Source: an uncultured Eubacteriales bacterium
GTDB taxonomy: Bacteria > Bacillota > Clostridia > Oscillospirales > Acutalibacteraceae
Reading direction: 5' to 3'
DNA length: 48,808 nt
Assembly (NCBI GenBank): GCA_900314795.1
Contig: OMWP01000019.1
Location: 1 to 48,808, forward strand
Part shown: positions 2,574 through 48,808 of the stretch, one piece after another
Numbering within the stretch: the first letter of the stretch is position 1
How the letters are laid out: each line of letters begins with the position of its first letter
Notes under the pieces: model-generated
The model's database searches: none
Told to the model about the DNA's origin: nothing
Seen by the model: the letters and a program-made list of their open reading frames with translations, nothing else
Position numbers and translations under genes: made by a program

Positions 2574-2757
2574 AGGCTCCCTTTGGTAAAGGTGAGTTGT
2601 TGTCCAAATCTTTTGAGGTGCTGTCAAAATCTTGATTTTGGTTACAGCACCCATTCGTTAGCTGATTTGGGGTACAACAACCATACACCGGAGAGCTGTC
2701 ACCAAAGGTGACTGAGGGATTGCACGGATTGTACGAGCGTTCAGCGAGTAACCAACA
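2574..2757. repeat. Triply nested hairpin repeat
   Basis: The outer element has the same ends as the copy at 36312-36390 (AGGCTCC...GGTAAA at the left, GAGCTGTC...GACTGAGG...GAGCG at the right). Its first hairpin is interrupted by a second element with stem GTTGTTGT/ACAACAAC and inner CCAAATC/GATTTGG. That element's loop is interrupted again by a third, with stem GGTGCTGT/ACAGCACC. The same double nest recurs near 45065-45155. It begins just after the metallophosphoesterase stop codon. Confidence 0.75.
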
Positions 2758-2872: not shown

Positions 2873-4150
2873 ATGGCTTTAAAATCATCAAATTTAACTG
2901 CAACCAACACCTATGAGGTAGAGGTAGAAGTAGACGGCAAAACCTTTATGGAGGCTGTTGCGAAGGTATTCAAAAAACAGGCGAAGAAGCTCGCAGTCCC
3001 CGGCTTCCGCAAGGGTAAAGCGCCCCGCGCCATCATCGAGAAGATGTACGGCGAGGATGTTTTCTATGACGACGCCATGCAGGATTGCTATCCCGACGCG
3101 CTGGACGAGGCTTGTGAGGCGGCAGGCTTAAAGGTCATCACCGTCACCGGTCTTGAGGCGACCCACGTTTCCAAGGAAGGCTTTACCTTCAAGGCGACCG
3201 TCGTTGTTGAGCCCGAGATCGAGATCAAGGACTATGACGGCATCGAGGTCGAGAAGCTCTCCACCGAGGTCACCGACGAGATGATCGACGAGGAGATCGA
3301 CCGCGTTCGTGAGCGCAACAGCCGCATGATCACCGTTGAGGATCGCGCCGCAGAGAACGGCGACACCGTTGTCATCGACTTCGAGGGCTTCTGCGACGGC
3401 GAAGCGTTCGAGGGCGGCAAGGCGGAGGAATATAACCTCGAGCTCGGCTCCGGCAACTTTATCCCCGGCTTTGAGGAGCAGATCGTCGGTCACAACACCG
3501 GCGACGAATTCGATATCGACGTCAAGTTCCCCGAGGAGTATCAGGCTGAGAACCTCAAGGGCAAGGACGCTGTTTTCAAGATCAAGCTCCACGAGATCAA
3601 GACCAAGGAGCTCCCCGAGGTCGACGATGATTTCGTCAAGGATGTTTCCGAGAAGGATACCGTCGCCGAGTACCGCGACGAGCTCAAGGAGCAGATCGCA
3701 AAGCGCCTGGAGAGTGAATCCGAGCGCGATCTCGACGATAAGCTGACCAACGCGATCATCGAGAAGGTCGAGGGCGAGATCCCCGAGCAGATGTATGACA
3801 GAGAGGCACAGAACATGGTGCGCGAGATGGATATGCGTCTGCGTCAGCAGGGCATGGACTTCGACACCTACATGAAGTACACCGGCATGGACGCAAACGC
3901 CGTCCTCGAGATGTACAAGCCCGAGGCTCAGCGCAGAGTCAAGATGCGTTTAGCGCTCGAGAAGATCGCTGAGCTCGAGAAGATCGAGCCCACCGAGGAA
4001 GAGATCAATGCGGAGTATGACAAGATGGCTGAGGCTTACAACATGGAAGCCGACAAGGTCAAGGAGATCATCCCCGTTGACAGCATCAAGGAAGACCTCG
4101 GCGTCCAGCTCGCGATGAAGCACATCAAGGACAACGCGGTCATCAAATAA
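2873..4150 (+). CDS. tig: Trigger factor (ribosome-bound chaperone, PPIase)
   Basis: This 425-residue protein has the three trigger factor domains. Residues 1 to about 145 form the ribosome-binding domain with the signature GFRKGKAPR. Residues about 155-245 form an FKBP-type prolyl isomerase domain (GDTVVIDFEGFCDG, LGSGNFIPGFEEQIVG). The rest is the helical C-terminal chaperone domain, rich in Glu and Lys. It binds nascent chains at the ribosome exit tunnel. The ATG is preceded by CAGGAGGAATAGAATA. The order tig-clpP-clpX-lon-engB is the conserved Firmicutes protein quality-control cluster. The 240-bp gap to clpP holds a repeat element, so clpP may have its own promoter. Confidence 0.97.
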   Translation: MALKSSNLTATNTYEVEVEVDGKTFMEAVAKVFKKQAKKLAVPGFRKGKAPRAIIEKMYGEDVFYDDAMQDCYPDALDEACEAAGLKVITVTGLEATHVSKEGFTFKATVVVEPEIEIKDYDGIEVEKLSTEVTDEMIDEEIDRVRERNSRMITVEDRAAENGDTVVIDFEGFCDGEAFEGGKAEEYNLELGSGNFIPGFEEQIVGHNTGDEFDIDVKFPEEYQAENLKGKDAVFKIKLHEIKTKELPEVDDDFVKDVSEKDTVAEYRDELKEQIAKRLESESERDLDDKLTNAIIEKVEGEIPEQMYDREAQNMVREMDMRLRQQGMDFDTYMKYTGMDANAVLEMYKPEAQRRVKMRLALEKIAELEKIEPTEEEINAEYDKMAEAYNMEADKVKEIIPVDSIKEDLGVQLAMKHIKDNAVIK

Positions 4151-26819: not shown

Positions 26820-27700
26820 CATGATGAACTGAAAATTGAAGACTGAAAACTGAATAATGAATAATAAACAGCCCCGATCATCCAATGATCGGGCTGTTGT
26901 GTAGGTGAGGGGCTTTCTCCTCCCGAAAACCTATCCATTACATGCTACCCAAATGCGAAGCAAATCAATCTTTCCGTAGGGTACGGCGCTTGCGACGTAC
27001 CGAGCTTTTCCGCAACATGCCATCCAAACGCAAAGCAAATCCCTGTTTCCGTAGGGATGTTCCTCAGCCGGAGACGGCACCCCTCTGTCGCATTGGTCAT
27101 CCGCAGAATGACGGGTGTTTCTGTTAACGAAAACGTGAGATAGGAATACAATGCTTCAACCACGCGGACGATCGATGATCGTCCCTACGGAAACATACAT
27201 CTCCTCAACCGACGCGGTGTGTGATCCAACGCCCTATTGCGGTACGTCGACAAGCGCCGTACCCTACAAAACGCACATATTCTCAATGAACATCCATTTT
27301 ATCCAACGTCCTGCCGCGGGAGCACCAAGGCGCTCCCCTACAAATCCGCTGTAACGCCACTTGTAGGGGAGGGGTGCTCCCCGTTGGGGAGACGTCACGA
27401 AGTGACAGAGGGGGAGGCGTCTCCGCCGAGGAATGCTCCTCCCGAAAACCTATCCATTACATGCCATCCATACGCAAAGCAAATCAATCTTTCCGTAGGA
27501 TACGGCGCTTGCGACGTACCGAAACCTTTCCGTTATATCTCATTCGCAAGATGAACTGAAAATTGAAGACTGAAAACTGAAGAATGAATCATAAACAGTA
27601 CCCGATCATCCGATGATCGGGCTGTTGTGTAGGGGATGACGCCGACACGCGGGTCCGACATCCCGCACCATTCCGTTATATCAAATTTGCACGCGAAGCA
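26820..27700. repeat. Long repeat cluster upstream of the polymerase
   Basis: No credible gene is seen in 26770-27705. Modules in order: AACTGAAAATTGAAGACTG repeat plus CAGCCCCGATCA..TGATCGGGCTG stem-loop (26827-26898); a degenerate G-rich hairpin (26900-26924); GTAGGGTACGGCGC hairpin (26977 on); a linker with GACGGGTGTTTCTG; inverted hairpins (27160-27345); a G-rich hairpin with a nested insert of about 60 bases (27361-27443); another GTAGG.TACGGCGC hairpin; a second AACTGAAAATTGAAG plus stem-loop; and a GTAGGGGATGACGC..GACATCCCG element in its shortest form (27629-27665). Confidence 0.75.
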
Positions 27701-28204: not shown

Positions 28205-28472
28205 TCAGTGTAGGGGAGGGGTGCTCCCCGTTGGGGAGACGTCACGAAGTGACAGAGGGGGAGGCGTTTCCGCCGAGGAATGCTCCTCCCGAAACGCTTC
28301 CATTAAATGTTGCCTATCGCGGAGCAAATCAAATGCTCCGTAGGGTACGGCGCTTGAACACGCGTGTTTGACGTACCGTAGAATGACGGGCGTTTCCGCT
28401 ATCGAAACCATAGATAGGATTACAAAGTTTCTGCCGTGCGGTACGTCATAAATGCCGTACCCTACAACCCTA
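28205..28472. repeat. Repeat cluster with nested G-rich hairpin
   Basis: The G-rich hairpin carries the same nested insert of about 60 bases as at 27361 (28209-28292). A GTAGGGTACGGCGCTTG hairpin with ACACGCGTGT in the loop follows (28340-28380), then the GACGGGCGTTTCCG linker and an inverted GCCGTACCCTAC arm. No gene seen. Confidence 0.75.
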
Positions 28473-32324: not shown

Positions 32325-32720
32325 AAATTGAAGATTGAAAACCGAATCATGAATCATAGAAAAGATCCCCGATCATTCGATGTTCGGGGATTTTTTGCGT
32401 AGGGCGGGGGTTCACTCCCGCCGAAATGTTTGTTAAGATGACAACCAAACGCGAAGCAAATCCAACGCTCTGCTACGGGGCGTCATAAATGTCGCCCCCT
32501 ACAAATCCGCCGCAACGTCTACTGTAGGGGAGGGGTGCTCCCCGTTGGGGAGACGTCACGAAGTGACAGAGGGGGAGGCGTCTCCGCCGAGGAATGCTCC
32601 TCCCGTAACTTTTTTATTATATCTCATTTGCGTGATAAACTGAAAACTGAAAACTGAAGACTGAAAACTGAATAATGAATCATAAACAGCACCCCGAGTA
32701 TACAACGCTCGGGGTGCTGT
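32325..32720. repeat. Repeat cluster
   Basis: Holds AAATTGAAGATTGAAAACC plus a CCCCGA..TCGGGG stem-loop followed by TTTTTT (32364-32396), which may terminate the C39 gene. Then GTAGGGCGGGGG..CCCGCCG (32399-32424), GGGGCGTCAT..GTCGCCCCCTAC (32476-32502), and the G-rich hairpin with the nested insert (32523-32605). Last is another AACTGAAAACTG run with a GCACCCCGAG..CTCGGGGTGC stem-loop (32638-32722). Confidence 0.75.
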
Positions 32721-33444: not shown

Positions 33445-34170
33445 ATCGTCATTGCGAGGAGGCGGTAAAGCCGCCGACGTGGCAATCTCAACCAAAAAAA
33501 CAATCTGAAAATTGAATAATGAATCATAAACAGCACCCCGATCATTCAATGCTCGGGGTGCTGCTGCGTAGGGGAGGGGCTTGAGGAGTTGTCCAAATCT
33601 ATGATTTGGCGTACAACTCCCATGCAACAGCGCTCCAAGAGCGGATTTATCCGTGATTGGCTAAGCGCCACTGCTGCTCCTCCCGAAACCCTTCCAATCA
33701 ATGCCGCCTATCGCGGAGCAGATCAATCCTTCCGTAGGGTACGGCGCTTGCGACGTACCGCAACCTTTCCGTACCATGTCACCCAAACGCGGAGCAAATG
33801 AAACGCCCTGCCGCGGGAGCACCAAGGCACTCCCCTACAATTTCACTGCAACGTCTCTTGTAGGGGATGACGCTTTGAGGAGTTGTCCAAATCTATGATT
33901 TGGCTAACAACTCCCATGCAAGGCTCTCCCAAGAAGCGGAGCATACTTGCGAACGCTGATTGGCTGAGAGCTATCGGTAGGCATATCCGGTTGGTATGCT
34001 TTGATCTCGTGGAACACGCGTGTTCGCGGCTCCTCCTCTCCCCATAACTCGGGGCGTTATGGGGATCCTGTGTTCGTGATTGGTTAAGCGCCACTGTGCG
34101 ACATCCCGAAGCCTTTTCGTGATATCTCATTTATGTGATGAACTGAAAACTGAAAACTGAAGAATGAATA
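33445..34170. repeat. Repeat cluster with nested elements
   Basis: No gene is seen between the holin and the tRNA. Contents: CATTGCGAGG module (33449-33492); AAATTGAATAATGAATC run and CACCCCGATC..GGGGTG stem-loop; G-rich hairpin whose loop holds a whole GGAGTTGTCCAAATC element (33568-33685); GTAGGGTACGGCGC hairpin (33736 on); inverted G-rich arm (33812-33840); a GGGGATGACGC..GCGACATCCC element (33860-34108) whose interior holds another GGAGTTGT element, further modules and ACACGCGTGT (34014-34023); and an AACTGAAAACTG run. Confidence 0.75.
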
Positions 34171-40760: not shown

Positions 40761-41045
40761 GTAGGGGATGACGCTTTGAGGAATTGTCCAAATCTTTGAT
40801 TTGGGTAACAATTCCCATGCAACAGCGCTCCAAGAGCAGATTTATCTGCGATTGGTTAAGCGCCACTGTGCGACATCCCGAAACCTTCCCGATATATCCC
40901 ATTTGCGCGCGAAGCAAATCAAGCGTACTGAGTCGGGGCGTCGTGAACGTCGCCCCCTACAAATCTACTGCAACGTCTCTTGTAGGGGAGGGGCTTGCTC
41001 CTCCCGTCACCTTTCCGTCAAACGCCATCCAAATGCGAAGCATAG
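40761..41045. repeat. Nested element and hairpin cluster
   Basis: GGGGATGACGC..GCGACATCCC ends (40761-40880) enclose a GGAATTGTCCAAATC..GATTTGGGTAACAATTCC element plus its ATGCAACAGCGCTCC tail. Then an inverted GGGGCGTCGTGAACGTCGCCCC arm and a G-rich hairpin (40980-41005) follow. Confidence 0.75.
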
Positions 41046-44844: not shown

Positions 44845-45311
44845 GTAGGGGATGACGCTTTGAGGAGTTGTCCAAATCTCTGATTTGGCTTACAACTCCC
44901 ATGCAAGGCTCTCCCAAGAAGCGGAGCATACTTGCGAACGCTGATTGGCTGAGTGCTACTGCGGAGGAGTTGTCCAAATCTTGATTTGGCATACAACTCC
45001 CTTGCAAGGCTCTCCCAAGAAGCGGAGCATACTTGCGAACGCTGATTGGTTGAGAGCTACTGCGGAGGAGTTGTCCAAATCTGTTGAGGTGCTGTCAAAA
45101 TCTTGTTTTTGGTTACAGCACCCATGCGTTAGCTGATTTGGCTAACAACTCCCATTCAACAGCGCTCCATCGTCGTCGCGCGCTTTACTCGGTAGGCATA
45201 TCCGGTTGGTATGCCTTGACCTCGCATTGCGGCTCCTCCTCTCCCCATAACTCGGGGAGTTATGGGGACCCTGTATTCGCGATTGGTTAAGCGCCACTGT
45301 GCGACATCCCG
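44845..45311. repeat. Largest nested repeat: 467-bp multi-level element
   Basis: The outer ends are GTAGGGGATGACGC (44845 on) and GCGACATCCCG (to 45311), the same ends that span only 37 bases at 27629-27665. Inside are three successive GGAGTTGTCCAAATC..GATTTGG..ACAACTCC elements, each with an AGGCTCTCCCAAGAAGCGG tail. The third holds a nested GGTGCTGTCAAAATC..ACAGCACC element in its loop. A GGCATATCCGG..GGTATGCC hairpin and a CCCCATAACTCGGG..GTTATGGGG hairpin are also inside. Confidence 0.8.
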
Positions 45312-48479: not shown

Positions 48480-48808
48480 AATCCACTGTAACGTCTATCG
48501 TAGGGGAGGGGCTTGCTCCTCCCGAAACCCTCCGAAAAATCTCACCCAAATGCGAAGCAGATCTCTGCTTCCGTAGGGTACGGCGCTTGCGACGTACCGA
48601 ACCTTTCCGCTCCATCCCGTTTGCACGCGTAGCAAATCAATCCCACCGTAGGGTACGGCGATTTTAGTTAGGAGTGAGGAGTTAGGAGTGAGGAGTTACC
48701 AAACGATGCAACGTCTATCGTAGGGGAGGGGTGCTCCCCGTTGGGGAGACGTCACGAAGTGACAGTGGGAGATTCCCCTGTTAGGGGAAATGTCCGCAAA
48801 GCGGACAA
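48480..48808. repeat. Repeat cluster at the window end
   Basis: G-rich hairpin (48500-48525), GTAGGGTACGGCGC hairpins (48573 and 48647), a short tandem run of GAGTTAGGAGTGAG units (48667-48697), then a G-rich hairpin with the nested TGCTCCCCGTTGGGG insert (48719 on) that runs into a different sequence, GGGAGATTCCCC, near the end. No gene seen. Confidence 0.7.

What the first reader, a model, noticed from the sequence alone, without database searches (positions are those of the whole stretch)
44845..45311. Nested hairpin repeats: elements inserted inside the loops of other elements
The ends GTAGGGGATGACGC and (G/C)CGACATCCCG enclose 37 bases at 27629, 120 at 40761, 249 at 33860 and 467 at 44845. 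In each enlarged copy the extra DNA lies in the hairpin loop and contains whole GGAGTTGTCCAAATC-type elements. The same element also sits in the loop of a G-rich hairpin (33568-33685). The TGCTCCCCGTTGGGG insert sits in four other G-rich hairpins (27361, 28209, 32523, 48719). Insertion into loops again and again suggests a mechanism that targets single-stranded or hairpin DNA, for example an IS200/REP-type Y1 transposase acting from elsewhere. No enzyme is seen here.
Basis: partly seen in the sequence, partly recalled or inferred. Interest (0 to 1): 0.8.

Follow-up and report, generated by a model that had tools for sequence, protein, structure and literature searches.

The report
Tiny mobile hairpins nested in hairpins
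An uncultured Ruminococcus-like bacterium carries dozens of roughly 90-base mobile DNA hairpins without any enzyme gene of their own, many of which have jumped into the very tips of other hairpin repeats and so build nests, which gives a concrete, testable case of mobile DNA that aims at hairpin tips.

Summary
The nests are real and lie exactly at the stated coordinates. The GGAGTTGTCCAAATC unit is a genus-restricted, transposase-less mobile element (84 model matches in this genome, 79 in a sister species): TGAGG-hairpin-linker-hairpin-CACTG(C)(T); one-hairpin versions of 43 and 50 bases exist. Comparison with the sister species gives four readable empty/filled pairs of the main type (A): three at the centre of a resident GTAG-type REP hairpin, one within 3 bases of the axis of a MITE hairpin; none requires a target duplication. 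In one orthologous REP the two species carry different inserts. Distinct type-A sites are at the apex of a 6-bp or longer palindrome in 24 of 38, against 5.9% of intergenic CT sites and 14.3% of sites with the loop motif. Best mechanism: single-strand mobilisation by a HUH Y1 enzyme, perhaps a resident RAYT (three of four junctions follow CT, where RAYTs cut). No enzyme is proven, and RAYT presence does not track the element across the genus. Precedents exist (SMR-A elements of Haloquadratum; REPs and ISs inside palindromes): a new variant of a known kind.

The parts
44845..45311 (+). 467-base nest: GTAG-REP (GTAGGGGATGACGC...GCGACATCCCG) with two type-B copies and one type-A copy in its loop
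44861..44960 (+). type-B element copy (left hairpin plus GGCTCTC/GAGTGCT right hairpin)
44963..45061 (+). second type-B element copy, head to tail (foot CGGAG instead of TGAG)
45067..45299 (+). type-A element copy with inserts in both of its own hairpin tips
   Evidence: read
45085..45127 (+). 43-base one-hairpin element (TGAGGTGCTGTC...) in the tip of the left hairpin of the type-A copy; absent in a similar (paralogous) nest of G012, L161
45170..45279 (+). about 110-base cassette (TCGTCGTCGC...) in the tip of the right hairpin; such a cassette is absent/present between orthologous copies elsewhere
33568..33685 (+). GTAG-REP (GTAGGGGAGGGG...CTCCTCCCG) with a type-A element (from 33582) at its apex
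33860..34108 (+). 249-base nest: GTAG-REP enclosing a type-B left part fused to a type-A right part with cassette; in sister species G012 (L153) the matching stretch holds a type-A element with the cassette
40761..40880 (+). 120-base nest: GTAG-REP with one type-A element (from 40777) at its apex
27629..27665 (+). GTAG-REP with the same arms and only a small palindrome-like loop (element-free)
27240..27267 (-). empty GTAG-REP (GTAGGGTACGGCGCTTGTCGACGTACCG); the orthologous REP in G012 (L153) is filled by a type-A element
28210..28291 (+). GTAG-REP with the TGCTCCCCGTTGGGG insert; the orthologous REP in G012 (L153:7929-8140) carries a type-A element instead
27363..27445 (+). GTAG-REP with the TGCTCCCCGTTGGGG insert
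32524..32605 (+). GTAG-REP with the TGCTCCCCGTTGGGG insert
48720..48808 (+). GTAG-REP with a longer, further nested TGCTCCCCGTTGGGG insert, cut by the window end
2596..2690 (+). one-hairpin element nested in the tip of another one-hairpin element inside a MITE-like repeat; L001 holds the same outer unit without the inner one

Best explanation
The GGAGTTGTCCAAATC unit is a short, transposase-less mobile element. The two-hairpin type A runs TGAGG...hairpin-CATGCAACA-hairpin-CACTG(C)(T), about 85-110 bases; one-hairpin versions are 43 and 50 bases. Shown: sister species differ by clean presence/absence at orthologous sites, so it is mobile. Shown for type A: it often goes in at the apex of resident palindromes (GTAG-type REPs, a MITE hairpin, other palindromes), and its own tips are hit in turn; that makes the nests. 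Shown for the four readable pairs: no target duplication is required; in three of them the left junction follows CT, and the right end reads CACTGC or CACTGCT. Inferred: both ends are cut as folded single strands by a HUH Y1 enzyme that recognises an (N)NAG-plus-hairpin signal, and the excised strand is joined into a CT exposed in the unpaired tip of an extruded hairpin, for example on the lagging-strand template. The most likely enzyme is a resident RAYT (TnpA_REP), which would then move the GTAG-REPs and this element alike.
For: Empty/filled pairs between G000 and G012: GGCGCT[TGAGG..CACTGCT]TGCCGACG (L015 filled / L159 empty), GGCGCT[..]TGTCGACG (L153 filled / window 27240-27267 empty), GGGGCT[TGAGG..CACTGC]GCTCC (L007 filled / L148 empty), CCTTCCTTTGGGA[..CACTGCT]AAGGAAG in a MITE hairpin (L138 filled / L126 empty). 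One orthologous REP (window 28210) carries a different insert in each species. Type A at an apex in 18 of 31 distinct unnested sites against 0.059 of 13,538 intergenic CT sites and 0.143 of 1,743 CT|TG or CTT|G sites (binomial P 8e-15 and 2e-8, too small if copies are not independent); 24 of 38 when nested copies and more of G012 are included. In 80 further loci 22 of 41 type A, 20 of 37 without the G012 records, some in palindromes that do not look like GTAG-REPs (L235 twice, L276). Five stem pairs with a change on both sides, 0 of 500 shuffles. Bases left of type A: CT in 8 and CTT in 13 of 31; type T CT in 4 of 7. RAYT-like ORF of 169 aa on contig C33 directly downstream of a GTAG-REP (NF047646 71.6 bits; nearest PDB chain TnpA_REP 4er8, E 4.7e-4). 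Purified RAYTs cut ssDNA at CT, modelled as chosen by A3G4 of GTAG (PMC8266576); the element starts TGAG.
Against: No enzyme was linked to the element. RAYT-family hits do not track it: 9 of 16 element-bearing and 23 of 44 element-free genomes (the model also picks up some IS200 genes). G051 (32 copies), G056 and G064 (11 each) have no RAYT-family hit and no Y1_Tnp hit; G060 (28) has no RAYT-family hit and one Y1_Tnp fragment. Type B has the same TGAGG left end, but 0 of 17 sites follow CT and 2 follow CTT, and B alone is at an apex in 0 of 20. 13 of 31 type-A sites have no 6-pair apex (11 of 31 at 5 pairs), 14 of 38. L138 follows GA, not CT. L015 and L153 can also be read as a 4-5 base duplication of (G)CTTG. 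Right ends vary by 1-3 bases, which a precise Y1 reaction would not predict. A structure slid by 3 columns also gives 4 pairs with change on both sides, and the number of pair types is not above the shuffles (117 of 500). The own RAYT scores below the curated cut-offs (71.6 against 80 bits; 21.7 against 23). IS200 ends in G012 do not resemble the element's hairpins (by eye). Orientation against GC skew was uninformative.
Confidence: 0.5

Rival explanations
1. Same element and same tip targeting, but moved by another HUH enzyme (a canonical IS200/IS605 TnpA, or one not caught by these models), with RAYT a bystander.
For: Full-length IS200-type tnpA genes in G012 (2 identical frames of 170 aa) and G050, and a tnpA fragment at a contig end in G000. 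The architecture (near-terminal hairpins, no inverted ends, no target duplication needed) is the IS605/PATE pattern described in PMC3119063.
Against: The ends of the G012 IS200 copies differ from the element's hairpins (by eye). G009, G010 and G011 carry full-length tnpA but no element. G051, G056 and G064 carry the element but no Y1_Tnp hit.
Confidence: 0.2
2. Host repair, not transposition: extruded hairpin tips are nicked or broken (for example by SbcCD, recalled) and patched by template switching or capture of single-stranded repeat DNA, so that any abundant hairpin can be grafted onto any tip.
For: Several unrelated sequences lie at tips: the GGAG element, the TGCTCCCC insert, a small palindrome (12-base TGAACACGCGTG present/absent), and a roughly 110-base cassette that differs between orthologous copies. 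End points vary by 1-3 bases.
Against: Type-A inserts keep the same right end: CACTG in 29 of 31 sites (list; the left end TGAGG is fixed by my search motif). 19 of 31 distinct sites are in GTAG-REPs and all of these in the same orientation, though L232 in the wider set reads as the opposite orientation. Repair capture should give scattered end points.
Confidence: 0.17
3. Few insertions, then co-amplification or gene conversion: a REP already carrying the element was copied around, so that tip insertion was rare.
For: Many filled REPs share the same arms; some T-type copies sit inside a MITE with ACTAAGTA-type inverted ends (L083, L101), which can carry them along.
Against: Empty/filled pairs keep the resident flanks and loop variant (GCTTGCCGACG in L015/L159, GCTTGTCGACG in L153/window). 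Hosts include unrelated palindromes.
Confidence: 0.08
4. An IS110-type (DEDD) recombinase guided by a bridge RNA targets the REP core, as IS621 does in E. coli; CT would be its core dinucleotide (recalled).
For: CT on both sides of the insert in L015 and L153; IS110-family elements are known REP-targeting ISs (PMC1525189, passages).
Against: No IS110-type transposase hit in G000, G012, G058, G051, G056 or G050 (6 of 8 genomes tested; hits only in G060 and G064). L138 has no CT at its left junction.
Confidence: 0.03

Closest known systems
SMR-A short mobile repeats of Haloquadratum walsbyi (PMC3119063, passages seen)
   Same: About 110 bp, no enzyme gene, no target duplication, tens of copies, strong preference for insertion within palindromes of other mobile elements; their mobilisation is called enigmatic by the authors.
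   Different: SMR-A have prominent inverted terminal repeats and hit the near-terminal palindromes of IS605-type elements and PATEs. This element has no inverted ends, is itself one or two hairpins, and hits REPs, MITE hairpins and its own tips in a bacterium.
PATEs, palindrome-associated transposable elements (PMC3119063, passages seen)
   Same: Transposase-less, near-terminal palindromes, no inverted terminal repeats, no target duplication.
   Different: The palindromes of PATEs are related to those of resident IS605-type transposons; no such parent was found here.
GTAG-type REPs and their RAYTs (PMC3733652, abstract, passages, sections 7 and 16; PMC8266576, passages and introduction)
   Same: Short hairpins with a tetranucleotide at the foot, in genomes with RAYT genes; the enzyme cuts at CT. 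Di Nocera et al. report REP families of three organisms inserted inside other palindromes (section 7).
   Different: The foot is TGAG, not GTAG. The GTAG-REPs are the hosts here, and the element is their guest.
Insertion sequences that target REPs (IS1397, IS621, ISKpn1, ISRm22; PMC1525189, passages seen)
   Same: Insertion into REPs; for ISRm22 at the palindrome axis.
   Different: Those are full IS elements with their own transposase.

Membership tests
SMR-A (Haloquadratum) | prominent inverted terminal repeats | tested here: not met
   Ends TGAGGAG.. and ..CACTGCT are not inverted copies (read)
SMR-A (Haloquadratum) | no target duplication | tested here: met
   Four type-A pairs can be read without duplication; two of them also allow a 4-5 base duplication
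SMR-A (Haloquadratum) | preference for palindromes of IS605-type elements or PATEs | tested here: inconclusive
   Preference for palindromes shown for type A, but the hosts are REPs and MITE hairpins
PATE | near-terminal palindromes, no inverted ends, too short for an enzyme gene | tested here: met
PATE | palindromes related to those of an IS605-type transposon | tested here: not met
   G012 IS200 ends compared by eye; only a tnpA fragment at a contig end in G000, so its own IS200 ends were only partly seen
GTAG-REP | GTAG (or near variant) at the foot of the hairpin | tested here: not met
   Foot is TGAG in all 19 rows; later copies of head-to-tail arrays have CGGAG
REPIN | two REPs in inverse orientation | tested here: not met
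   Both hairpins have CCAA on the 5' side, TTGG on the 3' side and three unpaired bases on the 3' side, i.e. the same orientation
RAYT (enzyme, L002 ORF) | match to the REP-associated tyrosine transposase family | tested here: inconclusive
   NF047646 E 6.1e-20, 71.6 bits, curated cut-off 80; 4er8 TnpA_REP E 4.7e-4
RAYT system | cuts element ends at CT as folded single strand | not testable with these tools
   needs purified enzyme; only agreement of junction bases was seen
IS110-type target system | DEDD transposase in the genome | tested here: not met
   PF01548 without a match in G000 and in 5 of 7 other element-bearing genomes tested

The most novel reading that the evidence does not exclude
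A self-nesting mobile system: a HUH enzyme joins excised single-stranded hairpin elements into the unpaired tips of any extruded hairpin, so that every insertion supplies new tips as targets. REPs, one-hairpin elements, two-hairpin elements and tip cassettes would all be substrates of the same reaction, and subfamily B would have drifted to another target.
Probability: 0.3. Interest if true: 0.8.

Novelty: new variant of a known kind. Interest (0 to 1): 0.62.

Why it matters
How REPs spread is unresolved (stated in PMC8266576), and the mobilisation of the palindrome-seeking SMR-A elements is called enigmatic (PMC3119063). Here empty and filled sites at base resolution, an element with near-constant ends, candidate RAYT genes and a clear hairpin-tip target come together in one genus, so that the reaction can be tested directly in vitro. 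If confirmed, hairpin tips would be a target class for single-strand transposition, and nested repeat clusters would have an explanation.

Tried and rejected
Autonomous parent: no Y1 gene flanked by the element's hairpins among 30 loci checked by motif (one chance motif match in L001), and no Y1-like ORF by motif in 80 loci around copies. A model hit about 400 bases upstream of the G000 tnpA fragment (C39:9364) is a one-hairpin unit inside the MITE also seen at window 2596, not an IS end. IS200 ends in G012 are unrelated by eye. IS110: no match in six of eight element-bearing genomes. Viral contigs, phages, plasmids: no match (single queries). Rfam: only a tRNA in the window. Orientation against GC skew as a test of lagging-strand use: skew too weak, no clear pattern. 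RAYT presence against element presence: no association. A first apex score with threshold 7 separated poorly (3 of 65) because the commonest REP has an internal mismatch; I replaced it by the longest uninterrupted run of at least 6 pairs, applied equally to the null sites. In one search five of the 17 type-B sites had the next element copy as right flank, which biases the test against B; repairs this by taking the outer end of arrays: B alone 0 of 20, B-headed arrays 1 of 3, A 24 of 38, T 1 of 8, 69 distinct sites in all. The nests at 44845 and 33860 share flank letters with 40761 and were merged with it there.

Automatic empty/filled calls: of 92 copies 45 had no partner, 15 were called empty, 12 filled, 20 other. 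On reading, most of the 15 were paralogous or short-flank matches or nested copies, and I count only L015 and L153 from them. L007 was called filled there but is empty in the alignment; L138 was missed by the motif but is. The T-type pair L035/L165 (cut after CT) is not counted because paralogy is not excluded. Type-B copies L045 and L178 have partners without the element in tandem GAGGAGT arrays (L139, L130). The nest at 44845 has no alignable empty site in G012; in G058 the orthologous intergenic region is short and has neither REP nor nest, which shows absence but not an exact junction.

Limits: one search uses 55 distinct sites left from 65 unnested copies with 30-base flanks; copies at contig ends and diverged copies are not in it; the left motif TGAGG was required. 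Intergenic means outside ORFs of at least 330 bases. Copies sharing REP arms are not proven independent. One search was spoilt by the word mite.

After the one check of the report I softened the type-B claim, mended identities and counts, and left the odds as they were.

Full report
What is there. The four REP copies with ends GTAGGGGATGACGC / (G/C)CGACATCCCG are exactly as stated: 37, 249, 120 and 467 bases at 27629, 33860, 40761 and 44845. They belong to a larger set of hairpins that begin GTAGGG and end CCCG or CCG; in the window plus 400 kb of three other contigs frequent empty forms are GTAGGGGAGGGGCTTGCTCCTCCCG and GTAGGGTACGGCGCTTGCGACGTACCG. These fit the GTAG-tagged REPs of Di Nocera et al. 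2013 (PMC3733652; abstract, passages and sections 7 and 16 seen). A RAYT-like gene of 169 aa lies on contig C33 directly downstream of such a REP (NF047646 E 6.1e-20 but 71.6 bits against a cut-off of 80; 4er8 TnpA_REP E 4.7e-4). A second RAYT-like ORF is on C39. The Y1 search of the own genome gave two hits, neither on the window contig.

The element. Aligning 19 and then 26 copies gives TGA-GGAGTTGTCCAAATC-n-GATTTGG-nnn-ACAACTCC-CATGCAACA-GCGCT-CCAA...TTGG-CTA-AGCGC-CACTG. Both hairpins share a lower stem, a CCAA/TTGG upper stem and three unpaired bases on the 3' side. In 25 distinct rows 95.0% of the pair cells are paired and 5 pairs change on both sides, each reached by 0 of 500 shuffles; the number of pair types is not above the shuffles (117 of 500), a slide by 3 columns also gives 4 pairs changed on both sides, the outer right stem is paired in only 81.6% of cells because type B differs there, and the row from L045 is misaligned. 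So the covariation is support, not proof. Three subtypes differ in the right hairpin: A (..GCCACT), B (..GCTACT, stem GGCTCTC/GAGAGCT) and T (..GTCACT). One-hairpin versions of 43 and 50 bases occur in the tips of left hairpins (the 43-base one against a paralogous nest), and one nested in another is at 2596-2690; L001 holds the same outer unit without the inner one. A covariance model finds 84 copies in this genome and 79 in G012, the element in 16 of 60 genomes of the genus (stricter filters gave 70 and 68 for these two), and in 1 of 147 genomes of the order, the own one. An exact 18-base scan, capped at 80 loci, names hosts as uncultured Ruminococcus, Oscillospiraceae or Clostridia MAGs, several with rumen or abomasum in the title; one is labelled Flavobacteriales, perhaps mis-binned.

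It moves, and where it lands. G012 is mostly 91-96% identical to this genome in the longer aligned blocks, 83% in one, and covers part of the window. Four type-A copies have a readable empty partner: L015/L159, L153/window 27240-27267, L007/L148, L138/L126. Three are inserted at the centre of a resident GTAG-REP (CT|TG between the arms; L007 is two bases short at its right end) and one within 3 bases of the axis of a MITE hairpin. The surrounding bases are the resident ones, so the REP was there before the element. None needs a target duplication; L015 and L153 could also be written as a 4-5 base duplication of (G)CTTG. At window 28210 the REP carries the TGCTCCCC insert, while the orthologous REP of G012 carries a type-A element with a tip cassette. 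The tips of the element itself are hit too: in L010/L136, L006/L157 and L011/L165 both species have the element, but the right tip is short in G000 and holds a TCGTCGTC cassette in G012.

How strong is the tip preference. Among 55 distinct unnested sites, type A is at the apex of a palindrome with at least 6 uninterrupted pairs in 18 of 31, type B in 0 of 17, type T in 0 of 7 (2 of 7 at 5 pairs). The same test on intergenic positions gives 5.9% of 13,538 CT sites and 14.3% of 1,743 CT|TG or CTT|G sites; binomial P 8e-15 and 2e-8, too small if copies are not independent. Five of the 17 B sites had another copy as right flank. With arrays taken to their outer end, nested copies included and more of G012, the counts are A 24 of 38, B alone 0 of 20, B-headed arrays 1 of 3, T 1 of 8. 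In 80 loci from 15 record sets, 22 of 41 type A and 2 of 13 type B are at an apex; without the G012 records 20 of 37 and 1 of 10. Some hosts there (GTGGGC/GCCCAC and GCGGAC/GTCCGC in L235, GTGGAC/GTCCAC in L276) do not look like GTAG-REPs.

How it may work. RAYTs cut folded single-stranded REPs at CT, modelled as selected by A3 and G4 of the foot GTAG (PMC8266576, introduction and passages seen). The element's foot is TGAG, and the left junction follows CT in three of four pairs; over all sites CT in 8 and CTT in 13 of 31 type A, CT in 4 of 7 type T, but CT in 0 and CTT in 2 of 17 type B. This fits excision of CT|TGAG...CACTGCT| and joining into a CT exposed at a hairpin tip. It is an inference. 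Against it: RAYT presence does not track the element (9 of 16 with, 23 of 44 without; the family model also picks up some IS200 genes), G051 with 32 copies has no RAYT-family and no Y1_Tnp hit, right ends vary by 1-3 bases, and the L138 junction follows GA. The copies of such genomes may be relics, may have been carried by other repeats (T-type copies lie in an ACTAAGTA-ended MITE in L083 and L101), or may use another enzyme.

What is known. Haloquadratum SMR-A elements are the nearest: about 110 bp, no target duplication, inserting within palindromes of PATEs and IS605-type elements, mobilisation 'enigmatic' (PMC3119063, passages); they have inverted ends, this element does not. PATEs match in architecture, but the link to a resident IS605-type parent was not met here. 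REPs inside other palindromes are reported for three organisms (PMC3733652 section 7), and an IS at a REP axis in PMC1525189 (passages). The listings of my paper searches showed nothing on this element, but they were few, one search was poorly worded, and the library holds open-licence papers only. I file it as a new variant of a known kind: it works like SMR-A, PATE and REP elements, and is a member of none on the features tested.

Noticed in passing
L370, L195, L367 (one site); L002 and L371 (second site); L369, L368 and L116 (third site): RAYT-like genes sit at the same chromosomal sites in G000, G012 and G058 but differ in kind: at the first site three different RAYT proteins end in NNPAHWAxDKYxQ, and two share the N-terminus. 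At the third site G000 has none. This looks like in-place exchange or loss of RAYT alleles.
   Followed up: partly
L369 and L368, RAYT genes; L371, 3' part: REP-like hairpins lie within RAYT genes (in frame in L369), and the G012 gene in L371 is interrupted by a repeat near its end.
   Followed up: no
window 28356, 34012, 45580, minus-strand positions 3216 and 14784; L153 against L015: A small palindrome GAACACGCGTGTT (and GACACGCGTGTC) sits in loops of several unrelated hairpins, and a 12-base TGAACACGCGTG is present/absent at the tip of one REP between two aligned stretches.
   Followed up: partly
L177/L132, L125/L138, L010/L136: A 110-150 base cassette (TCGTCGTCGC...GGGGACC) occurs in tips of the element's right hairpin and in loops of CGTC-type REPs, with presence/absence between species.
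   Followed up: partly
window 26824, 27551, 32316, 48660-48700: Short tandem repeats (TGAAAACTGAAAATTGA..., GTTAGGAGTGAGGA), like those known from cyanobacteria (recalled); type-B elements lie in such GAGGAGT arrays elsewhere in the genome.
   Followed up: partly
L118 against L161: A 32-base stretch with a REP (GTAGGGTACGGCGCCCGTCGACGTACCGC) is present in G012 and absent in G000 at one site, a REP-level insertion or loss.
   Followed up: no
L281 (DDJR01000006): A contig labelled Flavobacteriales UBA2619 carries the 18-base left end, possibly a mis-binned contig.
   Followed up: no
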